DNA of 48,614 nucleotides from NCBI GenBank assembly GCA_004299305.1, contig SCPZ01000118.1, positions 1-48,614 of the forward strand, in the 5' to 3' direction. Positions 17,299 through 30,530 of this stretch are shown in pieces. The position numbers were made by a program, and so were the translations under genes. Within the stretch, counting starts at the first letter, position 1, and each line of letters starts with the position of its first letter. Source of the DNA: Methylobacter sp. (GTDB lineage Bacteria > Pseudomonadota > Gammaproteobacteria > Methylococcales > Methylomonadaceae). Below the pieces are notes generated by a model. It had not been told where the DNA came from, ran no database searches, and worked only from the letters and a program-made list of their open reading frames with translations.

Positions 17299-18723
17299 TT
17301 ATCCCGCCATTAAATCCCCCGCCATATCCCCCAGCTTTTTTAGCGCCCGTTCCAATCTATCATTCCAAGGCACAGCGCAACTAAGCCGGATAAAGTTGCC
17401 GTATTTCTTTTGCGTAGCCGAAAACAGCGGCCCAGGCGCGATGATGATGCCTTCAAGGCTGGCTTGCCGATGCAGTTCCATCGCATCGACATGTTCCGGC
17501 AGCTCGACCCACAACGCGAAACCGCCTTCCGGCTGGGTCACTTTGGTACCCTCGGGAAAAAACAGGCTCACCGCTTTGACCATACGGGTCACGCTTTGCG
17601 CATAATCCTGCCGAACTTGGCGCAGGTAACGATCATAACCGCCCTGCTCCAGCAAATGGGCAATGATCAGTTGATTTAGCGTCGGCGTGGCCTGATGCAG
17701 CATGTATTTAAGATTTTCCACTTTTTTCATGTGTCGGCCCGGAACCAGCCAGCCGATGCGCAAGCCCGGCGACAAGGTTTTGGCAAAAGACGAGCAATAC
17801 AGCACTTCGCCCTGTTGGCTCCAGGCCTTGGCGACGGAAGGCCGCTTCAATCCGAAACCCAAATCGCCATAGACATCGTCTTCGACCAGCGGAATGCCGT
17901 TTTTTTCCAACAGTCCGACTATGTTCTTCTTCCGTTCGTCGGACATGCAGGAACCAAGCGGGTTGTTGTAGTTGGAAATCAACAGGCAGGCTTTGATCGG
18001 CCACTGTTCAATCGCCAGTTGCAGCGCTTCAACAGAAACGCCTTCGCGCGGATGAGTCGGTATTTCCAATGCTTCCATGCCGCAGGATTCGATGACCTGC
18101 AACAAGCCGTAAAAGGTCGGCGATTCGATAGCGATTACATCGCCCGGTTTGCAGACCGCCATCAACGCGAGCCGGACCGCGTCCCTCGCGCCATGAGTAA
18201 TGACTATATCGTCTGGACTGACCGTACAATTCAACTCGACCATGCGCTTGGCAATCTGGCGGCGCAGCTCTTGATTGCCGAGCAATTCGTCGGTGTCGAA
18301 ACAGCGTTTTTCAAACAGGCGCGCTACTTTTTGGGTGGCCTGTTGCAGAATCCGTGTCGGTAAGAATGCCGGGGCAGGTACCGAAGAGCCCAGATTGATT
18401 TGATAAGGGTCTTTAGCGGCCAACAGAATCTGCCGGGTTAAGGACTGGCCTGTCACACGGGAAGGCGTCGTTGACGGTTCGGAAATACCGGGTTCAGTGA
18501 TGGCTAGCCGGTGAACGGTGCTGACGTAATAGCCGGAACGCGCTCTAGCCTCGATTCGGCCTTGATCCTCCAGCAGCCGGTAGGCTTCAAGCGCGGTCGA
18601 TACGCTTACGTTCAACTGTTGGCTTAAGCGGCGTATGCCCGGCAAGCGCTCGCCTGTATGGTAAACGCCCTGTTCGATATGGGCGAGGATATGATCTGCT
18701 ACGGTCTCATAAAGATGTTTCAT
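17299..18723 (-). CDS. MocR/PdxR-type regulator (GntR HTH + aminotransferase fold)
   Basis: MocR-family regulators join a GntR-type winged helix to a class I aminotransferase-like domain that binds PLP and senses an amino compound. The N-terminal HTH (about 1-70) reads GERLPGIRRLSQQLNVSVST; the C-terminal domain (about 110-474) has NYNNPLGSCMS, EDDVYGDL and the PLP-lysine motif SFAKTLSPGLRIGW with Lys near 315. I chose the ATG at 18723, preceded by GAGGAGAGG, over a longer frame from 18768. It is divergent from the multicopper oxidase operon. The shared region upstream of both that operon and the nit cluster carries repeated ATCTGT-type sites overlapping the presumed -35, a usual place for MocR binding. 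Control of both is inferred, not shown. Confidence 0.9.
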   Translation of the reverse strand: MKHLYETVADHILAHIEQGVYHTGERLPGIRRLSQQLNVSVSTALEAYRLLEDQGRIEARARSGYYVSTVHRLAITEPGISEPSTTPSRVTGQSLTRQILLAAKDPYQINLGSSVPAPAFLPTRILQQATQKVARLFEKRCFDTDELLGNQELRRQIAKRMVELNCTVSPDDIVITHGARDAVRLALMAVCKPGDVIAIESPTFYGLLQVIESCGMEALEIPTHPREGVSVEALQLAIEQWPIKACLLISNYNNPLGSCMSDERKKNIVGLLEKNGIPLVEDDVYGDLGFGLKRPSVAKAWSQQGEVLYCSSFAKTLSPGLRIGWLVPGRHMKKVENLKYMLHQATPTLNQLIIAHLLEQGGYDRYLRQVRQDYAQSVTRMVKAVSLFFPEGTKVTQPEGGFALWVELPEHVDAMELHRQASLEGIIIAPGPLFSATQKKYGNFIRLSCAVPWNDRLERALKKLGDMAGDLMAG

Positions 18724-18878
18724 TAGTTTTGCCCTCTCCTCGGGTTGTCTGTCCGGCAAATTTAGCACAACTGTATCTATTTATGATTCATTTTTTTATA
18801 TTGTATAGCTATCTTGCTACCGCTCCCTCTCATATATCGTTCCTATACCGGAACAAAATCACAATAAATCCGAATTAC

Positions 18879-19002
18879 CCATAACAGTTACCGTCTTATT
18901 AAGCGGAACAGATCAGTTAAATCGCTATCTGTACTTAATAATTAATACAATTCTAAATCTGTTCCGCTTTCTTTCTCGCGAGTACAGTATGTACCGTCAA
19001 TC
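18879..19002 (+). promoter_or_regulatory. Promoter/operator region of the copper operon, shared with the nit cluster
   Basis: Three sites: GGAACAGAT (18905-18913), ATCTGTAC (18927-18934) and ATCTGTTCC (18957-18965). The first and third form an inverted pair AAGCGGAACAGAT/ATCTGTTCCGCTT. A -10-like TACAGT lies at 18983-18988 and the transcript should begin near CCGTCAATC (18994-19002). The spacings (13, 22 and 20 bases, then 5) are identical to those at 24208-24305 upstream of the nit cluster. The third site overlaps the position of the -35 element. Confidence 0.75.
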
Positions 19003-19017
19003 AGTTAAAGGGTTGAC
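18996..19017 (+). promoter_or_regulatory. 5' leader hairpin of the copper operon
   Basis: GTCAATC (18996-19002) can pair with GGTTGAC (19011-19017), 7 bp with one U-G pair and an 8-nt loop. It lies at the predicted 5' end of the transcript. The nit leader begins with the same left arm. Confidence 0.5.
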
Positions 19018-19040
19018 CTACTAACAACCGGGAGAATTTC

Positions 19041-20843
19041 ATGGCGCCAATTCAATCACCGGCTCATCCGTCTTCGCATAGGTTGCCTAGTAAATTGAAA
19101 CACACAGCATTCCGAGGTCATGTTATGCGTAAAAAATTGCTTAACACACTATTAGTAAGTAGCCCGTTGCTACTATTTTCCGTTTGTAGTCAGGCGGCTG
19201 TCGATTTGCCTGCTTCAGCAAAAATTCCATTGGGTGCAGCCGAGGAGGTTTGTGTCGATTTCAATCCAGCTTCGTGGCGTGATGCGCAAGAAATCGATGG
19301 CGTCAAAATCCAGGAGTCGCGTTTGTGCGAACCCGACAACCCGGCCGACATTGCCGCTTTCGTCAAAGGCACCAATAACATTTCCATGGAAACCTTGATG
19401 CATACGCAATTGGCTGCCGATGCCGTTACCCTATCCGACGATGTCGACGGCGACGGCGACCCCGACAAGGTCATTATCAAACTGGAAGTGGTCGAGCTGA
19501 ACGGGCATTCGCCCGACGTTAAAGAACCGATCACCACTTTCGATATAGCGCCGGGCATACAGCCGACCTTTTGGGTGTTTGCGCCGAAAACACGCGATAT
19601 GTCCACCATGAATCTTTACGATACCCGCGCCAATCCTACTTTGCGCGCCCCATCGCCGACGATACGCGTGGAACAGGATGATGTGGTTTGGCTTGTCTTA
19701 GAAAACACGCATTTTTTACCGCATTCCATTCACCTGCACGGCGTTGACCATCCGTTCGCGGATCAGGAAGGCACAGGCAATGATGGCGTTTCACAAACCA
19801 GCAATAGGGACACCATGCCGGGTGAGAGCAAAACCTATGTGGTTAAGCCGCGTCAGCCCGGCACCATGTATTACCATTGCCATGTGCAATCGCACACCCA
19901 CATCCCCATGGGTTTGCAAGGGATGTTTGTAGTGGAGGAAAACCGCCCCAACAACTGGCCGCAAACCTTGAATGTCGGCGCTGGCCAAGTGCGTCATCCC
20001 TCGGTCGCGGTGCTGGAAAAATATTCCCGGGAATATGACTTGCATTACCAATCCGCCGATAAAGAACTACACGAGACCGTGGCGCGATCCGCCAATGATC
20101 CCCGCTTGCTGGCGAAACACTTGAACATGGATTACGACACGACCGATGCCAGCAACGATTATTTCATGCTCAATGGTCGCTCGTTCCCTTATACCTTAAG
20201 GGAGTCTTTGATTCACATGGATAAGGATGAAAAAGTAAAGCTGCGGGTTTTGAACGGTCATACCGAAACCCTGGCCCTACACATGCATGGACATAAGCCC
20301 ACTAGCACGCATTATGACGGCGTAGATAACGGTACCGGCTCCCATATGCAAAGAGACGTGCATGGCATGGTAACGGCGCAACGGCTCGACTTGGAACTGA
20401 GCGGACAGGATGACGGCTTGCACAGCTTCGGCGAAGGTATCTGGATATTTCATGACCATGTTGAAAAAGCGTTCACTACCGACGGCGTGGGTGAAGGCGG
20501 CGATATTAGCCTGGTTGTCTATAAAGGCTTTTACGATGAGCGCGGCATCCCCAAAGTCCGCGGCATGAGTCTCGCACCTTACTTTACCAAGGCGTTTTGG
20601 CAACGAAACTATCCCATCTGGCAAGATTACGATGCTTGGCGTAGCTTAGGTCTTCCTGAGTTAACAGTCGGCGTTGCGGCAGCTGAGCAGGCAACAACCG
20701 ATGCCACATCAATTCCGCAGCAGTCGGGGCGCTCAACAGCCATAGTCTTGTTATACGGCATATTACTGGGCATTGCGCTCTATGTTGTAACGATTCGGCG
20801 GCATTCTATCCTGGGCTGGTTTCGGCAAAAACAATCCGGTTAG
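19041..20843 (+). CDS. Membrane-anchored two-domain multicopper oxidase
   Basis: Periplasmic copper oxidase. A first ATG at 19041 has a strong GGGAG site; an internal ATG at 19125 also has GAGG and begins a clean signal peptide (MRKKLLNTLLVSSPLLLFSV). The first 28 residues may therefore be an extension or the real start may be 19125. Copper motifs, numbered from 19041: HSIHLHG (228-234), HCHVQSH (279-285, with the type 1 Cys) followed by MGLQGMFVV, LHMHGHKP (413-420) and FHDHVEKAFTTDG (470-482). The Cys is in the first cupredoxin domain and none is in the second, as in type C two-domain oxidases. A C-terminal TM (AIVLLYGILLGIALYVV) anchors it. Substrate unknown. First gene of a copper operon with two metal-binding partners and an HMA-membrane protein. 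Confidence 0.9.
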   Translation: MAPIQSPAHPSSHRLPSKLKHTAFRGHVMRKKLLNTLLVSSPLLLFSVCSQAAVDLPASAKIPLGAAEEVCVDFNPASWRDAQEIDGVKIQESRLCEPDNPADIAAFVKGTNNISMETLMHTQLAADAVTLSDDVDGDGDPDKVIIKLEVVELNGHSPDVKEPITTFDIAPGIQPTFWVFAPKTRDMSTMNLYDTRANPTLRAPSPTIRVEQDDVVWLVLENTHFLPHSIHLHGVDHPFADQEGTGNDGVSQTSNRDTMPGESKTYVVKPRQPGTMYYHCHVQSHTHIPMGLQGMFVVEENRPNNWPQTLNVGAGQVRHPSVAVLEKYSREYDLHYQSADKELHETVARSANDPRLLAKHLNMDYDTTDASNDYFMLNGRSFPYTLRESLIHMDKDEKVKLRVLNGHTETLALHMHGHKPTSTHYDGVDNGTGSHMQRDVHGMVTAQRLDLELSGQDDGLHSFGEGIWIFHDHVEKAFTTDGVGEGGDISLVVYKGFYDERGIPKVRGMSLAPYFTKAFWQRNYPIWQDYDAWRSLGLPELTVGVAAAEQATTDATSIPQQSGRSTAIVLLYGILLGIALYVVTIRRHSILGWFRQKQSG

Positions 20844-20851
20844 AAAGCTAT

Positions 20852-20980
20852 ATGAAACAACGGGAAGTTATTGCAGCGACTGTTTCGGTGAAGCCCGTCA
20901 GGATGACGTCTTTTCAAGAAACAGTTTCTGTTCAACCGCTACCCGGTAACTTAATGAAATTTAATCGATTTGGAAGGTAA
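20852..20980 (+). CDS. Possible 42-residue small ORF in the copper operon
   Basis: An ATG nine bases after the oxidase stop opens 42 codons that fill the gap to two bases before the next gene. Sequence starts MKQREVIAATVSVKPVRMTS; no domain is recognised and the ribosome site is weak (AGAAAG). It may simply be an untranslated spacer. Confidence 0.25.
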   Translation: MKQREVIAATVSVKPVRMTSFQETVSVQPLPGNLMKFNRFGR

Positions 20981-20982
20981 CC

Positions 20983-21573
20983 ATGAACAAATTAGCAATT
21001 TTTAAAAACGTGTGCTTAGCATTAGCGGGCCTGATTTTTTCTGCGTCTGCGTGGGCGCATGGCGGCGCGGCGGGAACCGACACCGACCAGTGTAAGTTTG
21101 AATTAGAACCCGGTCACTGGCTTCACTATACCGCTTATCAACCGGAAATGTACCCCGCCAAGGATTTTTGCGGCAGCCTCCCTGCACTCAACGCGCTAAC
21201 GCAGTTGGTGTTTGATTATCAAGATATGCGTTATCGCGATATGGCGGTAGAGTTTGAAGTGACCAGAGAACCTGATGGAACGCGCGTTTTCTTTGAAGAA
21301 GCCAAAAAACATAAATCGGGAACGGTAGCTCTCTCTTTGCCCAAAGGCGTGACCGAACAAGGCAAGTATCTTATCCATATCACCTTATTAAAAAACGATG
21401 GCGGACGCTTGGATGCGCACATGGGCTTCACGGCGGGCGCAGGCGAATCAATTTCTTATAGCACTTATGGCTTATATGCGTTGTTTGCATTTGCGGGGCT
21501 TTACGTACTCTATCTTTCAAGCGCCGGATTTAAACGCCAGATTGACACTGGCCTAGAAAAAATTAAAGCGTAA
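20983..21573 (+). CDS. Predicted periplasmic protein with mature N-terminal His and C-terminal TM
   Basis: 196 residues, family not recognised. A signal peptide ends SASAWA, so cleavage would leave His26 (HGGAAG) as the first residue, the position used by histidine-brace copper proteins (CopC, LPMO-like chaperones). Two Cys (near 37 and 61) could form a disulfide. The middle is beta-rich (MAVEFEVTREPDGTRVFFEE, KYLIHITLLKNDG) with a further His near 146, and a TM segment (GLYALFAFAGLYVLYLSS) is followed by a basic tail. AAGGTAACC ribosome site just before the ATG. Its position between a multicopper oxidase and a cupredoxin suggests copper handling. That role is an inference from the mature N-terminus and the context. 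Confidence 0.8.
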   Translation: MNKLAIFKNVCLALAGLIFSASAWAHGGAAGTDTDQCKFELEPGHWLHYTAYQPEMYPAKDFCGSLPALNALTQLVFDYQDMRYRDMAVEFEVTREPDGTRVFFEEAKKHKSGTVALSLPKGVTEQGKYLIHITLLKNDGGRLDAHMGFTAGAGESISYSTYGLYALFAFAGLYVLYLSSAGFKRQIDTGLEKIKA

Positions 21574-21693
21574 TTCATTCATCAACGCCGCACTAAGTCA
21601 TGAACGGTGGTATTGAGGGCTGCGGTTTCCGGTCTTTGCAAACCGTACCGATAGCACCGTTTCATGCGCGCGGCAAGCGAAGAGGGACTCCCT

Positions 21694-22539
21694 ATGGCTC
21701 ACCTATTTTCAATCGCACTATTAACGGCTTTGTTGTCATCGACCGCGACCGCAAAGGAATACGAAAAACACACGGCGCTGATGGATCATGGCAATGGTCA
21801 CCTGATGGACATGAACGGCGGCATGGTGATGGGGCAAAATACCGACACGCTGCCGGGCGGATGCGACAAGATCAAGGCCACTAAAGAAATCACCGTACAT
21901 GCCGGGCACAAATACGCAGAAAAATTTCCTGGGCGGATGTGGGCTTTCGATCGACAAGAATTCAAGTTTGAGCCTTGCACCCAATTGACCGTACATTTCG
22001 TCAATGACGACCATATCCGCCACCAATGGATGATGCACGGTTTGCCTAAGTACCTTTATCCGCACGGCATGTTTCATTTGGAAGTATCGGGCCCTGCGCA
22101 AATAAGCGGCACGTTAATCTTGCCGCCCGGCGATCAAACCTACCTGGTGCATTGCGATATGGCGGGACACATGGAGAAAGGCTTAAAAGCCCAGCTTAAA
22201 GTCGGTAAAGGCAGCGGCGATTTGCCCAGCATTCCCGGCATCACCGCGAACCTGATTGAAGATAACTATAACGAAGCCATGCCGACGGTGCTGCTGGCCA
22301 AGACTGCTGCGCCTGTTAACGTTGCATCCAGCGAAGAACCGTTGATTTCCGGTACCTTACTGACCGGCATAGTTATAGGATTGTTGCTGACATCCTATTT
22401 GACGCGGAAATTTAAAGGCATGAGTGTTGCTGAAATTATTGCTTATATTTTTCAGCATTTAACGACTCTGTGTAGGTTTTTATTCAAGCAATTGGCCTTT
22501 TTAATAAAGCTGATATTACCTAATAAAATTTCTGTTTAA
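21694..22539 (+). CDS. Membrane-anchored cupredoxin (plastocyanin-like)
   Basis: 281 residues from the ATG at 21694 (GAGGGA upstream; a longer frame opens at 21664). Signal peptide (LFSIALLTALLSSTATA), a Met/His-rich linker (HTALMDHGNGHLMDMNGGMV), then a cupredoxin domain. Likely type 1 copper ligands are a His in HIRHQWMMHG, Cys154 in LVHCDMAGHMEKG, His159 and a following Met. A C-terminal TM (ISGTLLTGIVIGLLLTSYL) is followed by a second hydrophobic helix (LFKQLAFLIKLILP). It could pass electrons to or from the oxidase upstream. Third gene of the copper operon. Confidence 0.88.
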   Translation: MAHLFSIALLTALLSSTATAKEYEKHTALMDHGNGHLMDMNGGMVMGQNTDTLPGGCDKIKATKEITVHAGHKYAEKFPGRMWAFDRQEFKFEPCTQLTVHFVNDDHIRHQWMMHGLPKYLYPHGMFHLEVSGPAQISGTLILPPGDQTYLVHCDMAGHMEKGLKAQLKVGKGSGDLPSIPGITANLIEDNYNEAMPTVLLAKTAAPVNVASSEEPLISGTLLTGIVIGLLLTSYLTRKFKGMSVAEIIAYIFQHLTTLCRFLFKQLAFLIKLILPNKISV

Positions 22540-22672
22540 GTGCTTATATCTGCCTTAACACCTATCGGTTTAACGAGGAGTTTAAACTGGATGCTAGGGA
22601 ACACTAAGAGCATGACCGCAGGGGCTTGATACCGAGTTTCTGCTGATCCAGTCAACAACAGAGGGCTAGGCT

Positions 22673-23746
22673 ATGAACATCGTTACCAGAGAATTTAAAA
22701 TCAGTGGTATGCATTGTTTCGGCTGCGAAGAAGCCATAAACGATAGCCTCAAGGGAATGTCCGGCATCATCAAAGCCGAAGCCGACTACCGTCGGCAAAC
22801 CGCTAAAATTGTATATGACACTCGGTTAATCAGCGAACTTGCCATACGCCAGCACATAGAGGCCAAGGGCTATGGCGTTGACGAAGCTTCCAGGCCATTC
22901 TTCAAGAAAGCGATACAGACTCTGATCTTTTTGCTGCTACTGGCTTCCGTCGGCGGATTGGCATGGTGGGGGAAAAACCTAATCCCCGGCATTTTGCAGC
23001 AAATCAATCCTCACATGAACCCTACCTTGCTGTTCGGTATTGGCGTTTTAACCGGTTTTCACTGTATCGGCATGTGCGGCGGCTTTGTGGTCGGTTACAC
23101 CGTTGCCGGTCAATCCAAGGCTCGACAATTAGGGGCGCATTTACTCTACGGTTTAGGGAAAACACTGTCATATACCACGCTGGGCGCCGGTTCCGGTTTA
23201 CTGGGATCGATAATTGCCATCACACCGCTGATGCGAGGTACGGTCACTTTGCTGGCCAGCGGCTTCGTACTGCTATACGGTTTGAAAATACTGAATGTAT
23301 TTTCTCTATTACGGCGATTTAGCTTGCGCTGGCCGCGCATCATCAATCGGCAGGTTGCCGACAGTTTACGCCGACATCGCAGCCCTTTGTCCATCGGTTT
23401 GCTGAACGGGCTGGTATTAGGCTGCGGGCCTTTGCAAGCCATCTATGTAATGGCCGCAGGCACTGGCGATCCGCTGCAAGGCGCATTGTTTTTGCTAATA
23501 TTCGGCTTGGGTACTCTGTTACCCTTGACCGGGTTCGGCTTATTTGCTGTTCTGTTATCCCCAACTGCCATTCGGCAGCTGCTAAGCGTTTCCGGGATAT
23601 TGGTGATCGTGATGGGACTGATGATGGCGCAACGGGGATTGAAGCTCTTATCGCCCGTCGAATCAATGCTGTCGCCAGCACAATTGCAAACGTCGGCTCC
23701 GCTACCGTTACAGAAAAAATCATCGAAAACGCAGGCTGGGATATAG
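22673..23746 (+). CDS. HMA domain fused to SafE/DsbD-like six-TM protein
   Basis: 357 residues. The N-terminal heavy-metal-associated domain has GMHCFGC (Cys15, Cys18). A TM near 80-100 links to a membrane domain with TGFHCIGMCGGFVVGYTVAG and LLNGLVLGCGPLQAIYVMAA, the repeated pattern of the TauE/SafE or DsbD-TM2 group, with Cys in the membrane. Such fusions are found with copper and cytochrome oxidase maturation genes; movement of copper or reductant is the likely role. ATG preceded by GAGGG. Last gene of the copper operon, followed by a repeat island. Confidence 0.85.
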   Translation: MNIVTREFKISGMHCFGCEEAINDSLKGMSGIIKAEADYRRQTAKIVYDTRLISELAIRQHIEAKGYGVDEASRPFFKKAIQTLIFLLLLASVGGLAWWGKNLIPGILQQINPHMNPTLLFGIGVLTGFHCIGMCGGFVVGYTVAGQSKARQLGAHLLYGLGKTLSYTTLGAGSGLLGSIIAITPLMRGTVTLLASGFVLLYGLKILNVFSLLRRFSLRWPRIINRQVADSLRRHRSPLSIGLLNGLVLGCGPLQAIYVMAAGTGDPLQGALFLLIFGLGTLLPLTGFGLFAVLLSPTAIRQLLSVSGILVIVMGLMMAQRGLKLLSPVESMLSPAQLQTSAPLPLQKKSSKTQAGI

Positions 23747-24180
23747 TTGAAAATTCATCGCTATCAATCCGGTTTAACCAGCATCTCACATCAGCCGACA
23801 CTCATCCATATCACCTAGACTTATCAACGCTCGGTCGAGACGATGTATCGTTCCCACACTCCCGTGCTCATCGTTATACACAACACTGTCCCGTCTCCGA
23901 GTAATCCCCTTGTTGGGCGTGCTTCTAACTTCCCTCGTTCCCACGCGCTGCGCTCGTCTTTATACACAAGTCATTGTGAGAGCATTTGGAATTGCCCCTC
24001 TCGTAGGAGCGGGCCGCGCCCGCGACATTTGGGGGAATGATTACACTGTTGTAATGTCTTCATCGCGGGCATGACCCACTCCTACAATGGTCAACATCGA
24101 CCAAGGCATTCACACAGTTGTGTATAACGATGAGCGCAGCGTGTGGGAACGAGGTAACGTATTAGATAAATCAGATTTAA
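23747..24180. repeat. Nested inverted-repeat island between copper and nit operons
   Basis: An outer inverted pair, CGTTCCCACACT...TCGTTATACACAAC (23849-23889) and its inverse GTTGTGTATAACGATGAGCG...GTGGGAACG (24114-24152), encloses a further CGTTCCCACGCGCTGCGCTC copy (about 23937). It also encloses an inner inverted pair: GTAGGAGCGGGCCGCGCCCG near 24004 and TCGCGGGCATGACCCACTCC near 24063. No gene is seen. The structure could fold in RNA and separate the two operons. Confidence 0.75.
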
Positions 24181-24305
24181 CCATAACAGTTATCCGCTTT
24201 ATTAAGCGGAACAGATCGTCTAAACCGCAATCTGTACCCTAAAAATCATTTTTTCCTGAATCTGTCAACAAGCTTGCTTCACTCGTAAACTATCTCCCGT
24301 CAATC
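24181..24305 (+). promoter_or_regulatory. Promoter/operator region of the nit cluster
   Basis: Sites GGAACAGAT (24208-24216), ATCTGTAC (24230-24237) and ATCTGT (24260-24265), then a -10-like TAAACT (24286-24291) and CCGTCAATC (24297-24305) at the expected transcript start. Sequence and all spacings match the copper operon promoter at 18879-19002. The third site is less complete here (ATCTGTCAA instead of ATCTGTTCC). Confidence 0.75.
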
Positions 24306-24370
24306 CCCCTCAGTGATTGACGGCCATAACTCATCCCTGTATCGCCACCTGATTGATGCAGGGCTTTTTT
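24297..24370 (+). terminator. Leader hairpin plus terminator-like attenuator before nitB
   Basis: Hairpin 1: CCGTCAATC (24297-24305) with GATTGACGG (24315-24323), 9 bp. Hairpin 2: CCCTGTATC (24335-24343) with GATGCAGGG (24355-24363), 9 bp with one U-G, followed by C and six Ts (24365-24370). The second has intrinsic-terminator form and ends about 20 bases before the nitB start. TCAATC of hairpin 1 could instead pair with GATTGA (24351-24356), which would break the terminator. Regulated read-through is an inference. Confidence 0.6.
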
Positions 24371-24391
24371 ATTCATAACGAGGAATATTCC

Positions 24392-24874
24392 ATGCCAGCA
24401 GTTCAACAACCAGCACACATCAAAGGCGACTTTTTTGTCGATTACGAAGAGAAAGTGTTCGAAGACGTCAAAGCCGAACCCGGCGAAAAAGCCCTGGTGA
24501 AATTCCACACCGTGGCCTTTGAAGGCTCGATCGGCTTCGTAAACCTGTTGCAGGCGACCCGCTTGCAACGCAAGGGCTTTGAAACCTCGATCCTGCTGTA
24601 TGGGCCGGGCGTAACGCTGGGCATTCAACGCGGTTTTCCGCGCTTGGGCGATGAGGCTTTTCCGGGCCATCAAAACTACACCACCCAGATCAACAAATTC
24701 ATGGCCGAAGGCGGCAAGGTTTATGCCTGCCGGTTCGCGCTGCAAGCTTTGTACGGACACGGCGAACCCAGCCTGATCGAAGGCATCCGCCCGGTCAGCC
24801 CGCTTGATGTCTTGGACATTGTGCTGATCCATCGCCGCGAGAACGCTTTCATCCTGGATACCTGGACGATGTAA
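24392..24874 (+). CDS. nitB: NitB, MSMEG_0572/Sll0783-family protein
   Basis: 160 residues (ATG at 24392, CGAGGAA upstream). The family is known from Nit1C clusters and cyanobacterial nitrogen-starvation genes; its biochemical role is unknown. The protein is a compact alpha/beta type with [40 protein letters not shown] and a [16 protein letters not shown] segment with one Cys, somewhat like DsrE-type folds. First gene of a seven-gene set in the order known from Pseudomonas pseudoalcaligenes (nitB-nitH). No sigma54-type NitA gene is seen here. Confidence 0.88.
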
Positions 24875-24980: not shown

Positions 24981-25970
24981 GTGACATCAAATAAAATCGT
25001 CAGGGCGGCAGCGATACAGATTGCACCGGTGTTCGATTCTGCCTTCGGCACCGTCGACAAAGTTTGCCAGGCCATCAGCGATGCGGCCAAGGAAGGCGCT
25101 CAGCTGGTGGTATTCCCGGAAACCTTTGTGCCTTACTACCCGTATTTTTCGTTCGTGCTGCCACCGGTCGCCGCAGGCCGAGAACATTTAAAGCTTTACG
25201 AACATGCGCCGACCGTGCCGGGACCGGTCACCGATGCGGTTGCCGCCCAAGCCCGCGCGCTGGCCGTGGTCGTGGTGCTGGGCGTTAATGAGCGCGACCA
25301 CGGCAGTCTTTACAACACCCAATTGATTTTCGACGAATGCGGCAACTTGGCATTAAAACGCCGCAAGATCACCCCGACCTATCATGAACGCATGATCTGG
25401 GGCCAGGGCGACGCTTCCGGCCTGAAAGTGGTCGAGACCGGCATCGGACGGATCGGCGCATTGGCTTGCTGGGAACATTACAACCCGCTGGCCCGCTACG
25501 CCTTGATGGCGCAGCATGAAGAAATCCATTGCAGCCAATTTCCAGGCTCGTTGGTCGGGCCGATTTTTGCCGAGCAGATCGAAGTCACGATCCGTCATCA
25601 CGCGCTGGAATCCGGTTGCTTCGTGATCAACGCGACCGGCTGGTTACACGATGAGCAGATCGAATCGGTGACATCCGATCCCGGTTTGCAAAAAGCCCTG
25701 CGCGGCGGCTGTTGCACGGCCATTATATCGCCTGAAGGCCAACATCTGGCCGAACCGTTGCGCTCCGGCGAAGGCATGGTCATTGCCGATCTGGATATGT
25801 CGCTGATCACCAAACGCAAACGCATGATGGATTCGGTCGGCCATTATGCCCGCCCCGAGCTGTTAAGCTTGAGAATCAATGACAAGCCGACTGCGCCGAT
25901 GTTCAGCGATGAACCGGTAGCGATTTCTTTTCCAGCCCCCCAAAACAGCGAGCAACCCAGCCATGAATAG
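24981..25970 (+). CDS. nitC: Nit1C nitrilase
   Basis: Nitrilases hydrolyse nitriles to acid plus ammonia. In P. pseudoalcaligenes this gene's counterpart is required for growth on cyanide. The catalytic triad is visible: Glu47 ([12 protein letters not shown]), Lys129 ([12 protein letters not shown]) and Cys163 ([12 protein letters not shown]). 329 residues is the normal length. It starts with GTG at 24981, AGGAG eight bases upstream. The stop overlaps the radical SAM gene start by eight bases. Closest to the Nit6803 (Sll0784) group by memory of motif context; the natural substrate is not known. Confidence 0.95.
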
Positions 25971-27057
25971 AGCCGAACCACAACTGATTACCGAGCTGCA
26001 ATCGTTGGGATTGCGGCTGGAAGATGCAGAATCCGGCCTTGCCGTCCGTCGCGGAGGGGCTGGCCCATCCGACCACAAAGCCGTTACCTTGGGCGGCAAA
26101 ACCATCATGGTGCCGATCGCCACAACAGGGGCAATCAACTCGCCGTTCATCGCCAGCCGTCCCGATGAACACGGCATCAGCATCATTCGCCGCGATGGCC
26201 GCGACATCGACTTGATTACATTTCCCCGCCAGCCGCTTTTTTACGGTTTAAAAACTGCGGACGGCGTGCCCTATTCCCATATCGCTACTCTACATGCGGC
26301 GGATGTATTGGCTACGACGGTGTTGCAATCCTGCATCCGCTACAGCAACCGAAAAAAGTCCTGCCAGTTTTGCGCGATTGAGCAATCGCTGCAAGCAGGT
26401 CTTACCATCCTCCGCAAAACGCCTGAACAGTTGGCCGAAGTCGCCCGTGCTGCGGTAGAGCTGGACGGCGTCAAGCACATGGTCATCACCACCGGCACGC
26501 CGAACCTGAGCGACTGCGGCGCGGCGATTCTGTGCGAAAGCGCCGTCGCGGTGAAAGCCGCCGTCAACCTGCCGATTCAAGGCCAATGCGAACCGCCGGA
26601 TGACGATAGCTGGTTCGAACGCATGAAGGCCGCAGGCATCGACAGCTTAGGCATGCACCTCGAAGCCGTCACCCCGGAAGTCCGCGCCCGGATTATGCCC
26701 GGCAAAGCCGGTGTGCCGATGGAACGATATATGGACGCTTTCGATGCGGCGGTTGCGGTGTTCGGCAGGGGCGAAGTCAGCACCTACATTCTGGCCGGGC
26801 TGGGCGATTCCGCAGAGGCGATCCTATCCGTTTGCGAACAGCTGGTCGGCAAAGGCGTTTATCCGTTCGTGGTGCCGTTTATCCCGGTTACCGGCACGCC
26901 GCTGGCCGATCATCCATCGCCCGATCCGCGCTTCATGCAGGATATTTTACAACCGCTCGGCGCTATGTTGAAACAAGCTGGGCTCCGCTCCGCCGACATA
27001 ACAGCAGGATGCGCCAAATGCGGCGCTTGCTCGGCCCTATCCAGTTACGAGGTCTGA
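25963..27057 (+). CDS. nitD: MSMEG_0568-family radical SAM-like protein
   Basis: 364 residues. Belongs to the Nit1C radical SAM family; reaction unknown. Cysteines that could hold iron-sulfur clusters are C124, C134 and C137 ([19 protein letters not shown]), a CX9CX2C spacing instead of the standard CX3CX2C. C350, C353 and C356 near the end ([10 protein letters not shown]) form a CX2CX2C group suited to an auxiliary cluster. TIM-barrel-like features follow: [36 protein letters not shown] and YILAGLGDS. Overlaps the nitrilase gene and is one base from the GNAT gene. Confidence 0.9.
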
Positions 27058-27601: not shown

Positions 27602-28569
27602 ACGATCTAGCCCGGCTGACGCAAAGCATAAGGCAAAGCATCGGCTTGGCGCATAAGCGCGATATTGCTGCGGTGACGAACATGCTTCCGTTGCCGAAAG
27701 GTGCAATCCGCTTGGGAGACGACTGCGCCTCTATACCGGACCGGGACGGATTTTTATTGTTCGCAACAGAAGGTTTCCTGAATGAGTTTGTCGCGACTCA
27801 GCCCTGGTTTGCCGGTTACTGCGGCGTGATGGTCAATGTCAGCGATATTTACGCAATGGGCGGCAGGCCGATTGCCGTGGTCGATGCGATCTGGAGCGAC
27901 AGCGAACAACAAGCCCGACCGGTGCTGGAAGGCATGGTCGCCGCCTCGGAAATTTATCGCGTGCCTATCGTCGGCGGACACAGCAATCTTCGCAACGACC
28001 GCTCGCAACTGTCGGTGGCGATTCTCGGTCGCGCCAATAAATTGCTCAGCAGTTTTGCGGCAAAAGCAGGGCAAAAACTGCTGGCGGCGGTCGATTTGCG
28101 CGGGCATTTTCGGGAACCTCATGCGTGGTGGGATGCGAGCACCGGTTCGCCACCCGAACGATTACGTGAGGATCTGGAATTATTGCCGCAACTTGCCGAA
28201 ACCGGTCTGTGTGCCTCGGCAAAGGACATCAGCATGGCCGGCATGGTCGGCACGGTGCTGATGCTGCTGGAGTGCTCCGGCTTGGGCGGCGTAATCGATG
28301 TGAACGCGATACCGCGCCCTCCAGGTATTCCGTTAGAGCCTTGGCTGTGCTGTTTTCCCAGTTACGGCTTTGTATTAAGCGCGGAAGGTCGGCATACCGG
28401 AGCCATCATCGAACATTTCTCCCGGCGCGGCATTAGTTGCGCGGTAATCGGCGAAACCGACACGTCCGACCGCCTGAAACTTGCCGATGCCGACAAAGAG
28501 GAACTGCTATGGGACTTGCACGCGAGCCCGTTGACCGGCTGCGGCCCAAAATTCAAGCAGGGGGTGTAG
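27598..28569 (+). CDS. nitF: AIR synthase-like (PurM-type) protein, Sll0787 family
   Basis: 323 residues of the PurM/SelD/ThiL ATP-grasp-like fold. Visible: [24 protein letters not shown], the metal/phosphate segment [41 protein letters not shown] and [19 protein letters not shown]. It probably activates a substrate with ATP for the cluster's unknown product. The start is ATG 27598, overlapping the GNAT stop; a longer in-frame opening back to 27313 lies inside the GNAT gene and is ignored. Confidence 0.9.
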
Positions 28570-28680
28570 GGTACGCTACGCGTACCTTCCACATTGATTT
28601 TTATGAAGATTACAAAGGTACGCACAGCGTACCTACCTAAGCTAACTGCTTTGCAACTTTTACGGTAAGAGGCCTTATCC
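28570..28680. repeat. Palindromic insert between nitF and nitG
   Basis: AGGGTACGCTACGCGTACCT (28568-28587) and AGGTACGCACAGCGTACCT (about 28617-28635) surround a short AT-rich spacer. The same GTACGC...GCGTAC motif occurs at 17089-17115 and 17234-17250. It interrupts an otherwise tightly packed operon. Confidence 0.6.
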
Positions 28681-28968
28681 ATGCCTGAAATGCGTTTTCG
28701 CGTCCGTTGGCCGGACCAATCCACCAGTCTTTGTTATTCGCCGTCACAGGTGATCAAGGATTTTTTTAAACCGGGCGAAACCTACGAATTGGAAGATTTT
28801 CTCGCCCGTAGCCGGGCGGCTTTGCAAATCGCCAGCGAGCGGGTTCGGCAGAAATACGGTTATACCTGTTCCAGTGCAATGAGCCAATTGGCTGAAATTG
28901 AAACTGTCGCCGCGCGATTTTTGGACATTGAAAACCCGAAGGTCTTGATCGAAGAGTTCATAAGCTAA
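28681..28968 (+). CDS. nitG: MSMEG_0570-family nitrogen starvation response protein
   Basis: 95 residues. Conserved start MPEMRFRVRWPDQSTSLCYS, PSQVIKDFF, the YELEDFLARSRAALQIASERV helix and EIETVAARFLDIE. The family is found only with these clusters; role unknown, perhaps a small subunit. Here the gene is separated from its neighbours on both sides by repeats, but its frame is intact. Confidence 0.88.
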   Translation: MPEMRFRVRWPDQSTSLCYSPSQVIKDFFKPGETYELEDFLARSRAALQIASERVRQKYGYTCSSAMSQLAEIETVAARFLDIENPKVLIEEFIS

Positions 28969-29222: not shown

Positions 29223-30530
29223 ATGAATAATCAACAAAACAATCCTCACCCACATTACCCAGTCATTATCGTCGGCGGCGGCCAAGCCGGTTTGTCGGTC
29301 AGCTATCACTTGCAAAAGCTGGACATCAGCCATATCGTCTTTGAAAAGAACCGGGTCGGCCATTCCTGGCGCAACGACCGCTGGGACAGTTTTTGTCTGG
29401 TGACCCCGAACTGGCAATGCCGGTTGCCGGACTTTCCGTATCAAGGCGACGATCCGCAAGGCTTCATGCTCAAGGATGAGATTGTCGACTATGTCGAAGC
29501 CTTTGCCGAAAAGGTCAATGCGCCATTAAACGAAGGCGTAGCCGTAACCCGTGTCCGCAGGAGCAAACAAGGTTGGCTTGAGGTGACGACCAGCGCCGGT
29601 GACTTCACCGCCGATCACTTGGTCGTGGCAACCGGAGGTTACGATATTCCGATTGTTCCGGATTATGCGCACAGTCTTCCCGAACGCATCACCCAGGTTC
29701 ACTCCATGCATTACCGCAACCCGCAGCAACTTCCGCCCGGCGAGGTGCTGGTGGTGGGGTCCGGCCAATCCGGCGTACAGCTGATGGAAGACTTGCACTT
29801 GGCCGGACGGAAAGTGCATTTGGCCGTGGGTAATGCACCGCGTTCGCCGCGCCTGTATCGCGGCCGGGAAACTACCGAATGGCTGTACGACCTGGGCTTT
29901 TACCAGCTGACCGTGGATAAACACCCGCTGGGCGATGCGGCTAAACACAAGACCAACCACTACCTGACCGGGCGCAACGGCGGCCATGAAATCGATTTGC
30001 GCAAGTTTGCACTGGAAGGTGTCCGCCTGTACGGCACCATGGCGAATATCCACGGCAGTACGCTGGAATTCAAGGCGGACTTGACTCAAAACCTCGACGA
30101 AGCCGACGAGGTCTATGTGCGGATACGCGAGGATATTGACCGCTATATCGCGGACAACCGGATTGATGCGCCGGAAGAGCCGCCGTTCAGCAAAATCTGG
30201 GAACCCGAATTCGATCCGACCGCGTTGGATGCCGATGCCGCCGGTATCACATCGATCGTCTGGGCAATCGGTTTCCGTCCCGATTACAGCTGGATAGAGC
30301 TGCCGGTTTTCGATGGTCGTGGACATCCGCAATTCCAGCGCGGCGCAAGCAATGAAGAGGGGCTTTATTTTATCGGCTTGCCTTGGCTCAACACCTGGGG
30401 TTCCGGTCGCTTTCTGGGCATTGCCGAAGATGCGCAATACTTGACCGGGGTGATTCGGGACAAGATAGAGACGGCGCAAAGCCAGACCTGCACATCGCGC
30501 GGGCCTGCTGCGAACCGAGAGTTAAGTTAA
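29223..30530 (+). CDS. nitH: MSMEG_0569-family FAD-dependent oxidoreductase
   Basis: 435 residues, a flavoprotein monooxygenase-like enzyme. N-terminal FAD motif VIIVGGGQAGLSVSYHL, RNDRWDSFCLVTPNWQCRLP (typical of this group), the ATG motif LVVATGGYDIP, an NAD(P)H motif VLVVGSGQSGVQLMEDL near residue 177 and the C-terminal IGLPWLNTWGSGRFLGI. Last gene of the Nit1C set. The reaction is unknown, but it would let the pathway oxidise an intermediate. Confidence 0.92.
   Translation: MNNQQNNPHPHYPVIIVGGGQAGLSVSYHLQKLDISHIVFEKNRVGHSWRNDRWDSFCLVTPNWQCRLPDFPYQGDDPQGFMLKDEIVDYVEAFAEKVNAPLNEGVAVTRVRRSKQGWLEVTTSAGDFTADHLVVATGGYDIPIVPDYAHSLPERITQVHSMHYRNPQQLPPGEVLVVGSGQSGVQLMEDLHLAGRKVHLAVGNAPRSPRLYRGRETTEWLYDLGFYQLTVDKHPLGDAAKHKTNHYLTGRNGGHEIDLRKFALEGVRLYGTMANIHGSTLEFKADLTQNLDEADEVYVRIREDIDRYIADNRIDAPEEPPFSKIWEPEFDPTALDADAAGITSIVWAIGFRPDYSWIELPVFDGRGHPQFQRGASNEEGLYFIGLPWLNTWGSGRFLGIAEDAQYLTGVIRDKIETAQSQTCTSRGPAANRELS

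What the first reader, a model, noticed from the sequence alone, without database searches (positions are those of the whole stretch)
18879..24305. Copper operon and Nit1C cluster share one promoter design
Upstream of the multicopper oxidase (18879-19002) and of nitB (24181-24305) about 125 bp match. Each has GGAACAGAT, 13 bases, ATCTGTAC, 22 bases, ATCTGT, 20 bases, a TAnAnT -10 box, 5 bases, then CCGTCAATC. Identical spacing of five elements over that length indicates one regulator, with the third site overlapping the -35 position. The MocR-type regulator divergent from the copper operon is the nearest candidate. This would tie nitrile/cyanide metabolism to a copper oxidase system, a link I do not know to be described.
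Basis: partly seen in the sequence, partly recalled or inferred. Interest (0 to 1): 0.85.

Follow-up and report, generated by a model that had tools for sequence, protein, structure and literature searches.

The report
One MocR switch, two methanotroph operons
In a methane-eating Methylobacter, an operon thought to break down cyanide or nitriles and a spare copper-oxidase operon carry the same four-part control site, which comparison with relatives assigns to the MocR-type regulator encoded beside them.

Summary
Of the 237 held genomes of the family, NitC is in 19, a close MocR (>=76%) in the same 19, and the exact pattern in 17, all among them. The operator follows this MocR clade to relatives of about 40% identity beside unrelated genes. 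So MocR is very probably the regulator. The copper link is repeated: another genus has a different MCO copy beside MocR and nit1C, with its own operator. Window boxes are 95% and spacers 53% identical, so this is no fresh promoter copy. Signal and sign are inferred: probably activation by cyanide or a nitrile, as for P. aeruginosa MpaR (PMC10790758). CCGTCAATC is the 5' arm of a leader hairpin; at nitB a conserved terminator-like hairpin follows. Binding and expression are untested.

The parts
17299..18723 (-). MocR-type regulator gene (GntR HTH + class I aminotransferase domain), start at ATG 18723
   Evidence: Pfam GntR and Aminotran_1_2; start from homologues; its close orthologue lies within about 3.2 kb of nit1C in all 14 nit1C loci
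18884..18962 (+). operator of the copper operon: box 0 ACAGTT 18884-18889, box 1 ACAGAT 18908-18913, box 2 ATCTGT 18927-18932, box 3 ATCTGT 18957-18962
   Evidence: four-box order conserved with MocR homologues
18983..18988 (+). -10-like TACAGT, 20 nt after box 3
   Evidence: a TAnnnT at exactly 20 nt in 33 of 47 distinct homologous operators
18996..19017 (+). leader hairpin of the copper operon (GTCAATC, loop 8, GGTTGAC); no terminator found
19041..20843 (+). accessory multicopper oxidase-like gene (possible later start at 19125)
   Evidence: Cu-oxidase_3/_2; groups with genus g8 copies, not with the genome's own copy on C121
20983..21573 (+). small protein with signal- and membrane-like ends (by eye), no family
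   Evidence: 82% homologue beside an MCO in G057
21664..22539 (+). cupredoxin-like protein with C-terminal membrane segment (read by eye)
   Evidence: weak Cu-oxidase_2, E 0.011, below cut-off; 44% homologue between MCO and MocR in G126
22673..23746 (+). HMA + DsbD_2 membrane protein, probable copper handling
24186..24265 (+). operator of nit1C: box 0 24186-24191, box 1 24211-24216, box 2 24230-24235, box 3 24260-24265
24286..24291 (+). -10-like TAAACT, 20 nt after box 3
24297..24323 (+). leader hairpin P1 (CCGTCAATC, loop 9, GATTGACGG)
24335..24370 (+). intrinsic-terminator-like hairpin (10 bp) plus T6 just before nitB
   Evidence: 18 of 19 distinct nitB leaders scanned (18 of 20 with G128, left out of the scan) against 17 of 1900 shuffles; compensatory pairs
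24392..24874 (+). nitB
   Evidence: TIGR04044
24981..25970 (+). nitC, Nit6803-type nitrilase
   Evidence: TIGR04048, 576 bits against cut-off 503
25963..27057 (+). nitD radical SAM
   Evidence: TIGR04043
27059..27601 (+). nitE acetyltransferase
   Evidence: TIGR04045
27313..28569 (+). open frame holding nitF (AIR synthase-like); true start is further in
   Evidence: TIGR04049 from residue 100 on
28681..28968 (+). nitG
   Evidence: position and conservation in nit1C loci
29223..30530 (+). nitH FAD-dependent oxidoreductase
   Evidence: Pfam Pyr_redox_3; conserved in nit1C loci

Best explanation
The two promoters form one small regulon of the MocR-type regulator encoded beside the copper operon and transcribed away from it. 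It recognises a four-box operator: two ACAG(T/A)T boxes followed by two ATCTGT boxes in the opposite sense, the last box at the -35 position exactly 20 nt before the -10. Two head-to-tail MocR dimers, one on each pair of direct repeats, are the simplest occupancy (inferred). Because the -35 is poor and box 3 sits on it, activation is more likely than repression (inferred, about 65%). The likely signal is cyanide or a nitrile acting on the PLP pocket (inferred, about 45%). The response would switch on cyanide/nitrile breakdown (nit1C) together with a spare periplasmic copper oxidase set. Shown here: operator, positions, conservation, co-occurrence, a repeated placement of copper genes. Inferred: binding, sign, signal, physiology. 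The confidence given is for MocR controlling both promoters through this operator, whatever the sign and signal.
For: Only two exact operator sites in the genome. NitC in 15 of 201 + 4 of 36 = 19 of 237 family genomes; MocR at >=76% identity in the same 19; the exact three-box pattern in 17 of 237, all among the 19. In 16 of these 17 an exact site lies before nitB; in G126 the exact site is before an MCO and the nitB boxes are altered, as they are in G064 and G128. Non-nit MocR homologues: 30 of 41 upstream regions score >=15 of 18 for the three boxes against 3 of 820 shuffles; a class-wide set gives 23 of 32 against 1 of 1600 (three operators are in both sets). Of 47 distinct operators chosen on boxes 1-3 only, 44 have ACAG at -24/-25 and 33 have TAnnnT at exactly 20 nt. 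Second MCO case: in G126 an MCO copy, a cupredoxin-like gene and MocR lie in one row behind an exact operator, next to nitH. Window boxes 95%, spacers 53% identical. In G064, where MocR stands apart from nit1C, MocR has its own altered operator, 16 of 18. Two-direct-plus-one-inverted operators are the commonest MocR type, and the four-box order is listed (PMC5320631, passages).
Against: No binding or expression data. An MCO beside MocR occurs in only 2 of 17 nit1C genomes whose surroundings were read (G591 and G595 not read that far), and contig ends hide part of the view in G039, G064, G128 and G141. In G126 the nitB boxes are altered (ACAGTC, AACTGT, TTCTGT). Eleven of 41 and 9 of 32 MocR homologues score below 15, and the MocR 2 kb downstream of nit1C in G564 has no such operator. 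The operator is near-symmetrical: 6 of 32 also score >=15 in the reverse sense. The Nit1C regulator described for Pseudomonas is NitA, sigma-54 dependent (PMC11049912). In strain CECT5344 a MocR represses, not activates, the cio cluster (PMC8567248), so the sign could be the reverse. Relatedness of the genomes weakens the co-occurrence statistic.
Confidence: 0.87

Rival explanations
1. The copper operon's promoter is a copy of the MocR-nitB promoter carried along when the operon was inserted, with no function of its own.
For: In four relatives of the same genus MocR is directly divergent from nitB with no copper genes between, so the operon was probably inserted there; upstream parts of the two window promoters are alike. 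The window MCO groups with another genus.
Against: Boxes 95% but spacers 53% identical, while nitB promoters of four same-genus genomes keep 72-86% in the spacers against the window's: the boxes were kept as the rest drifted. G126 shows another MCO copy with an operator.
Confidence: 0.08
2. A regulator other than MocR binds the boxes, and MocR is only a neighbour.
For: No binding data; NitA, not MocR, is the Nit1C regulator described for Pseudomonas (PMC11049912).
Against: The operator is found beside MocR homologues in loci without nit1C, and three nit1C loci from outside the order lack the boxes at the threshold used. No sigma-54 regulator gene was found among the cluster's neighbours in the window.
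Confidence: 0.05
3. MocR is the regulator but as a repressor of both operons, released by its ligand.
For: Proteomics of a CECT5344 MocR mutant, cited by its authors as unpublished, showed constitutive cio proteins (PMC8567248); box 3 overlaps the -35, where a repressor could also block.
Against: The consensus scan shows no good -35 to be blocked, and the -10 spacing to box 3 is fixed across most of the clade, as for contact with RNA polymerase. MpaR acts positively on ccoN4 with a needed ATCTGAT element at about -68 to -62 (computed by me from distances in PMC10790758), where box 2 lies here if transcription starts at 24297.
Confidence: 0.33
4. The signal is nitrogen shortage or an amino compound, not cyanide.
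For: NCBIfam names two of the nit families nitrogen starvation proteins; other MocR relatives lie beside aminotransferase-, PhzF- or DUF1127-like genes (by eye).
Against: Nit1C is described as required for cyanide assimilation in CECT5344 and induced by cyanide waste (PMC8567248, PMC5333837); copper oxidase genes make little sense under nitrogen shortage (inference).
Confidence: 0.35

Closest known systems
MpaR of Pseudomonas aeruginosa and its cyanide-inducible cluster (PMC10790758, passages read)
   Same: MocR-type regulator; drives an extra respiratory-oxidase subunit under cyanide, with a CcoG-type cupric reductase gene in the same cluster; an ATCTGAT element about 62-68 nt before the start is needed; PLP-pocket lysine needed (K314 there, K315 here by motif).
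   Different: Targets are ccoN4, ccoG-like and nirA genes, not nit1C or an MCO; no four-box operator in the passages read; orthology was not tested because the P. aeruginosa sequence was not obtained.
Nit1C cluster with NitA, Pseudomonas CECT5344 and others (PMC11049912, PMC8567248, passages read)
   Same: Same nitBCDEFGH set.
   Different: No adjoining NitA-type regulator found here; a MocR and four-box operator instead; a leader terminator; a copper operon between regulator and cluster.
MocR of CECT5344, divergent from the cio cluster (PMC8567248, passages read)
   Same: A MocR tied to cyanide resistance and to a nitrilase (Nit4).
   Different: Reported as a repressor of cio; action on nit1C not mentioned in the passages read.
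MocR regulons of the 2016 survey (PMC5320631, passages read)
   Same: Repeated boxes, direct plus inverted, near-constant spacing; the order <- <- -> -> is listed for 8 regulogs.
   Different: No occurrence of nitrilase, cyanide, copper, YjiR or Methylo- in the main text; supplementary tables not seen.
E. coli YjiR (name recalled from the gene's neighbours; locus L172)
   Same: 39-40% identical MocR; same four boxes, two of them changed, upstream.
   Different: No nit1C or MCO found nearby.

Membership tests
MocR-subfamily regulator and regulon | GntR HTH fused to an aminotransferase fold | tested here: met
   PF00392 and PF00155
MocR-subfamily regulator and regulon | PLP lysine in the aminotransferase domain | tested here: met
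   SSFAKTLSPG motif; motif meaning recalled
MocR-subfamily regulator and regulon | operator of direct and inverted boxes with near-constant spacing | tested here: met
MocR-subfamily regulator and regulon | direct binding and control of both promoters | not testable with these tools
   needs EMSA, footprint, reporters
Nit1C cluster | nitB-nitC-nitD-nitE-nitF-nitG-nitH in order | tested here: met
   NCBIfam above cut-off for B to F; H by Pfam; G by position and conservation
Nit1C cluster | adjoining sigma-54 regulator NitA (Pseudomonas form) | tested here: not met
   neighbours are MocR, copper genes, GGDEF/EAL and PhoBR-like genes
MpaR-type cyanide regulon | cyanide-dependent expression | not testable with these tools
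   none here
MpaR-type cyanide regulon | required ATCTGAT element about 62-68 nt before the start | tested here: inconclusive
   ATCTGT at the like place if transcription starts at 24297; start not mapped
MpaR-type cyanide regulon | cbb3 subunit gene as target | tested here: not met
   no such gene among the proteins of the two operons
Copper-resistance oxidase CueO/CopA | curated score cut-off | tested here: not met
   CueO 22.6 of 525 bits, CopA 30.9 of 479 bits

The most novel reading that the evidence does not exclude
The MocR is a cyanide (or PLP-cyanohydrin) sensor that gives methanotrophs a two-armed cyanide response: it turns on cyanide assimilation and at the same time replaces or supports copper-dependent periplasmic oxidation with a spare multicopper oxidase, placed under its operator in at least two genera; transcription of the nit arm then meets a second checkpoint at a leader terminator.
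Probability: 0.35. Interest if true: 0.78.

Novelty: new variant of a known kind. Interest (0 to 1): 0.62.

Why it matters
It names a regulator and an operator for Nit1C in methanotrophs, where the papers searched gave none. It links cyanide/nitrile use to copper oxidases in organisms whose particulate methane monooxygenase depends on copper (recalled). It gives a clear operator for a MocR clade spread over several gammaproteobacterial families, with a YjiR-like member in E. coli, making further regulons predictable. It also suggests that MocR proteins are a recurring solution for sensing cyanide, which can be tested directly.

Tried and rejected
Dispersed-repeat reading: rejected, 2 exact sites only in the genome. 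Known RNA element in window 18700-24500: Rfam gave 0 matches at E <= 1. CueO/CopA copper resistance: cut-offs far from met. ANTAR-type two-hairpin antitermination for the nitB leader: considered from recall; the P1 loops are 6-12 nt and vary; not pursued. RNAalifold on the leader alignment gave only 4 pairs, because the gaps misplace the terminator stem there; stems were therefore read per sequence. The leader of G128, without a T run, was left out before that count, so the figure is 18 of 20 with it. Structure prediction of the 20983-21573 protein was too poor to use (mean pLDDT 54) and no fold search was made. A sigma-54-like site before nitB of G564 was seen by eye only. The MCO tree is rough: bootstrap not settled, and the G126 copy sits on a long branch whose place is unsure. 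The search was too broad to inform.
Full report
The observation. The three-box pattern occurs twice in the window and in none of 100 shuffles. In the genome of 4,490,529 bases the exact pattern occurs only at these two places. Up to two mismatches add only the reverse reading of the nitB site, since the operator is nearly symmetrical; three mismatches add two unrelated places and two more reverse readings.

What lies around it. MocR (17299-18723, minus) has a GntR domain and an aminotransferase domain. The copper operon holds a multicopper oxidase-like protein, a small protein without family, a cupredoxin-like protein (my reading of the ligands) and an HMA-DsbD_2 membrane protein. The nit cluster passes NCBIfam cut-offs for nitB, nitC, nitD, nitE and nitF. 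The nearest named relatives of MocR are in Methylobacter (93-95%), so the window is from a methanotroph of or near that genus.

Co-occurrence. The family is held as 237 genomes. NitC is in 15 of 201 and 4 of the other 36. MocR at 76% identity or more is in the same 15 and the same 4; the other matches listed there are at 59% or less. The exact pattern is in 17 of 237, all among those 19; the other two, G064 and G128, have boxes with changes. Drawn at random this would have a chance of 5e-24, a figure that ignores relatedness. In the 14 other nit1C loci MocR lies within about 3.2 kb of nit1C, but in different arrangements: directly divergent from nitB in four genomes of the window's genus, on the nitH side in the rest.

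The operator follows MocR, not nit1C. The scan by protein for MocR relatives returned 61 loci. Of 41 without nit1C, read upstream of MocR, 30 score 15 or more of 18 for the three boxes, against 3 of 820 shuffles. Left out were 13 nit-linked loci, 5 fragments, one near-duplicate E. coli locus and one locus cut at the gene start. A second set gave 23 of 32 against 1 of 1600: the 29 best loci listed by a class-wide search by protein (61 of 369 genomes matched), plus three MocR regions fetched from two nit1C genomes outside the order. Three operators are in both sets. Pooled, 47 distinct operators with that score have ACAG at 24 or 25 nt before box 1 in 44 cases, and a TAnnnT at exactly 20 nt after box 3 in 33, at 21 in 5, at 19 in 1, at no other distance from 14 to 27. 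Neither feature was used in choosing them. The neighbouring genes differ: DUF1127-like, PhzF-like and aminotransferase-like (names by eye). Conversely, nit1C loci of three genomes outside the order lack the boxes, and the MocR 2 kb behind nit1C in one of them, G564, lacks an operator.

The copper arm. Relatives of the multicopper oxidase are in 199 of 201 family genomes. The window's genome has three matches; the one on C121 stands without the other copper genes. The window's copy groups with copies of another genus (support 99/100, rough) and not with the C121 copy, so it was probably acquired. One genome of that genus, G057, has the first three genes of the row without operator or NitC (the HMA-DsbD_2 gene was not found there). 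In G126, another genus, a divergent MCO copy with a cupredoxin-like gene and MocR follow an exact operator, next to nitH. The two MocR-linked MCO copies are 61% identical and do not group in the tree, though the long G126 branch leaves its place unsure; two separate placements are likely, not proved. In the window, boxes are 95% identical between the two promoters and the rest 53%; nitB promoters of four same-genus genomes share 72-86% of the rest with the window's nitB. Counter-evidence: only 2 of 17 nit1C genomes read have MCO there, and in G126 nitB's own boxes are altered.

The leader. CCGTCAATC is, on the evidence here, the 5' arm of a hairpin at the predicted 5' end of both transcripts; a role as a protein site is not excluded. 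In the nitB leader a terminator-like hairpin with a T run follows, right before the start codon. It is in 18 of 19 distinct leaders scanned, 18 of 20 with G128, against 17 of 1900 shuffles, with compensatory changes such as A-U to G-C. The same test finds none in the window's MCO leader or before nitB in the three outside loci. Condition-dependent readthrough is likely; the mechanism is unknown.

How it most likely works. MocR occupies the four boxes, probably as two head-to-tail dimers, and helps polymerase at a promoter without a good -35. The sign is inferred; a repressing role is the main rival, as reported for the CECT5344 MocR on the cio cluster (PMC8567248). The signal is inferred from function: nit1C serves cyanide use in Pseudomonas (PMC8567248, PMC5333837), and MpaR, a MocR that needs its PLP lysine, responds to cyanide; its authors propose PLP-cyanohydrin as the ligand (PMC10790758). 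From the distances given there, the required ATCTGAT lies at -68 to -62; box 2 here lies at -67 to -62 if transcription starts at 24297. A further hint is that two of three nit1C clusters outside the order have a quite different MocR-type gene (22-23% identical) divergent from nitB.

Against what is known. Papers were searched for MocR with cyanide, nitrilase, Methylomonas and YjiR, for Nit1C, and for methanotroph with nitrilase and cyanide or with hydrogen cyanide and copper. I saw listings and the starts of abstracts, and read passages of PMC10790758, PMC8567248, PMC5320631, PMC11049912, PMC13021748 and PMC5333837, no paper whole. None of what I saw described MocR control of nit1C or a joint copper-oxidase regulon. 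The library lacks most subscription papers and I did not see the supplement of PMC5320631, so the statement is limited to these searches.

Noticed in passing
24297-24370 and nitB leaders of L124-L134, L117, L051, L046, L195-L200: Conserved hairpin plus intrinsic-terminator-like hairpin with T run between promoter and nitB start: a probable attenuator of nit1C in methanotrophs.
   Followed up: partly
L243:1591-2985 (-), L245:3666-5003 (-): In two genomes outside the order a different MocR-type gene (22-23% identical) is divergent from nitB; MocR proteins seem to have been paired with nit1C more than once.
   Followed up: partly
L171, L172, L174 upstream of the MocR gene: Escherichia YjiR-like genes carry the same four-box operator in slightly changed form; the one paper found with YjiR and MocR (listing only) was not read.
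   Followed up: partly
L051:11379-12804: The MocR gene of G064 is in two overlapping pieces in different frames (assembly error or broken gene), though an operator lies before it.
   Followed up: no
L129, L132 (Methylomonas fluvii) and G595: Two nit1C-MocR sets in M. fluvii; two NitC and two close MocR genes in G595.
   Followed up: no
between nitF and nitG, e.g. L129 7110-8293, L044 10647-11831: Many loci of other genera (not G128) have about 1.1 kb more between nitF and nitG than the window (28569-28681), enough for one extra gene.
   Followed up: no
about 23930-23955 and 24115-24155: Stretches like GTTCCCACGCGCTGCG, also seen near nitB in G138 and G097, look like a dispersed Methylobacter repeat beside the operator.
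   Followed up: no
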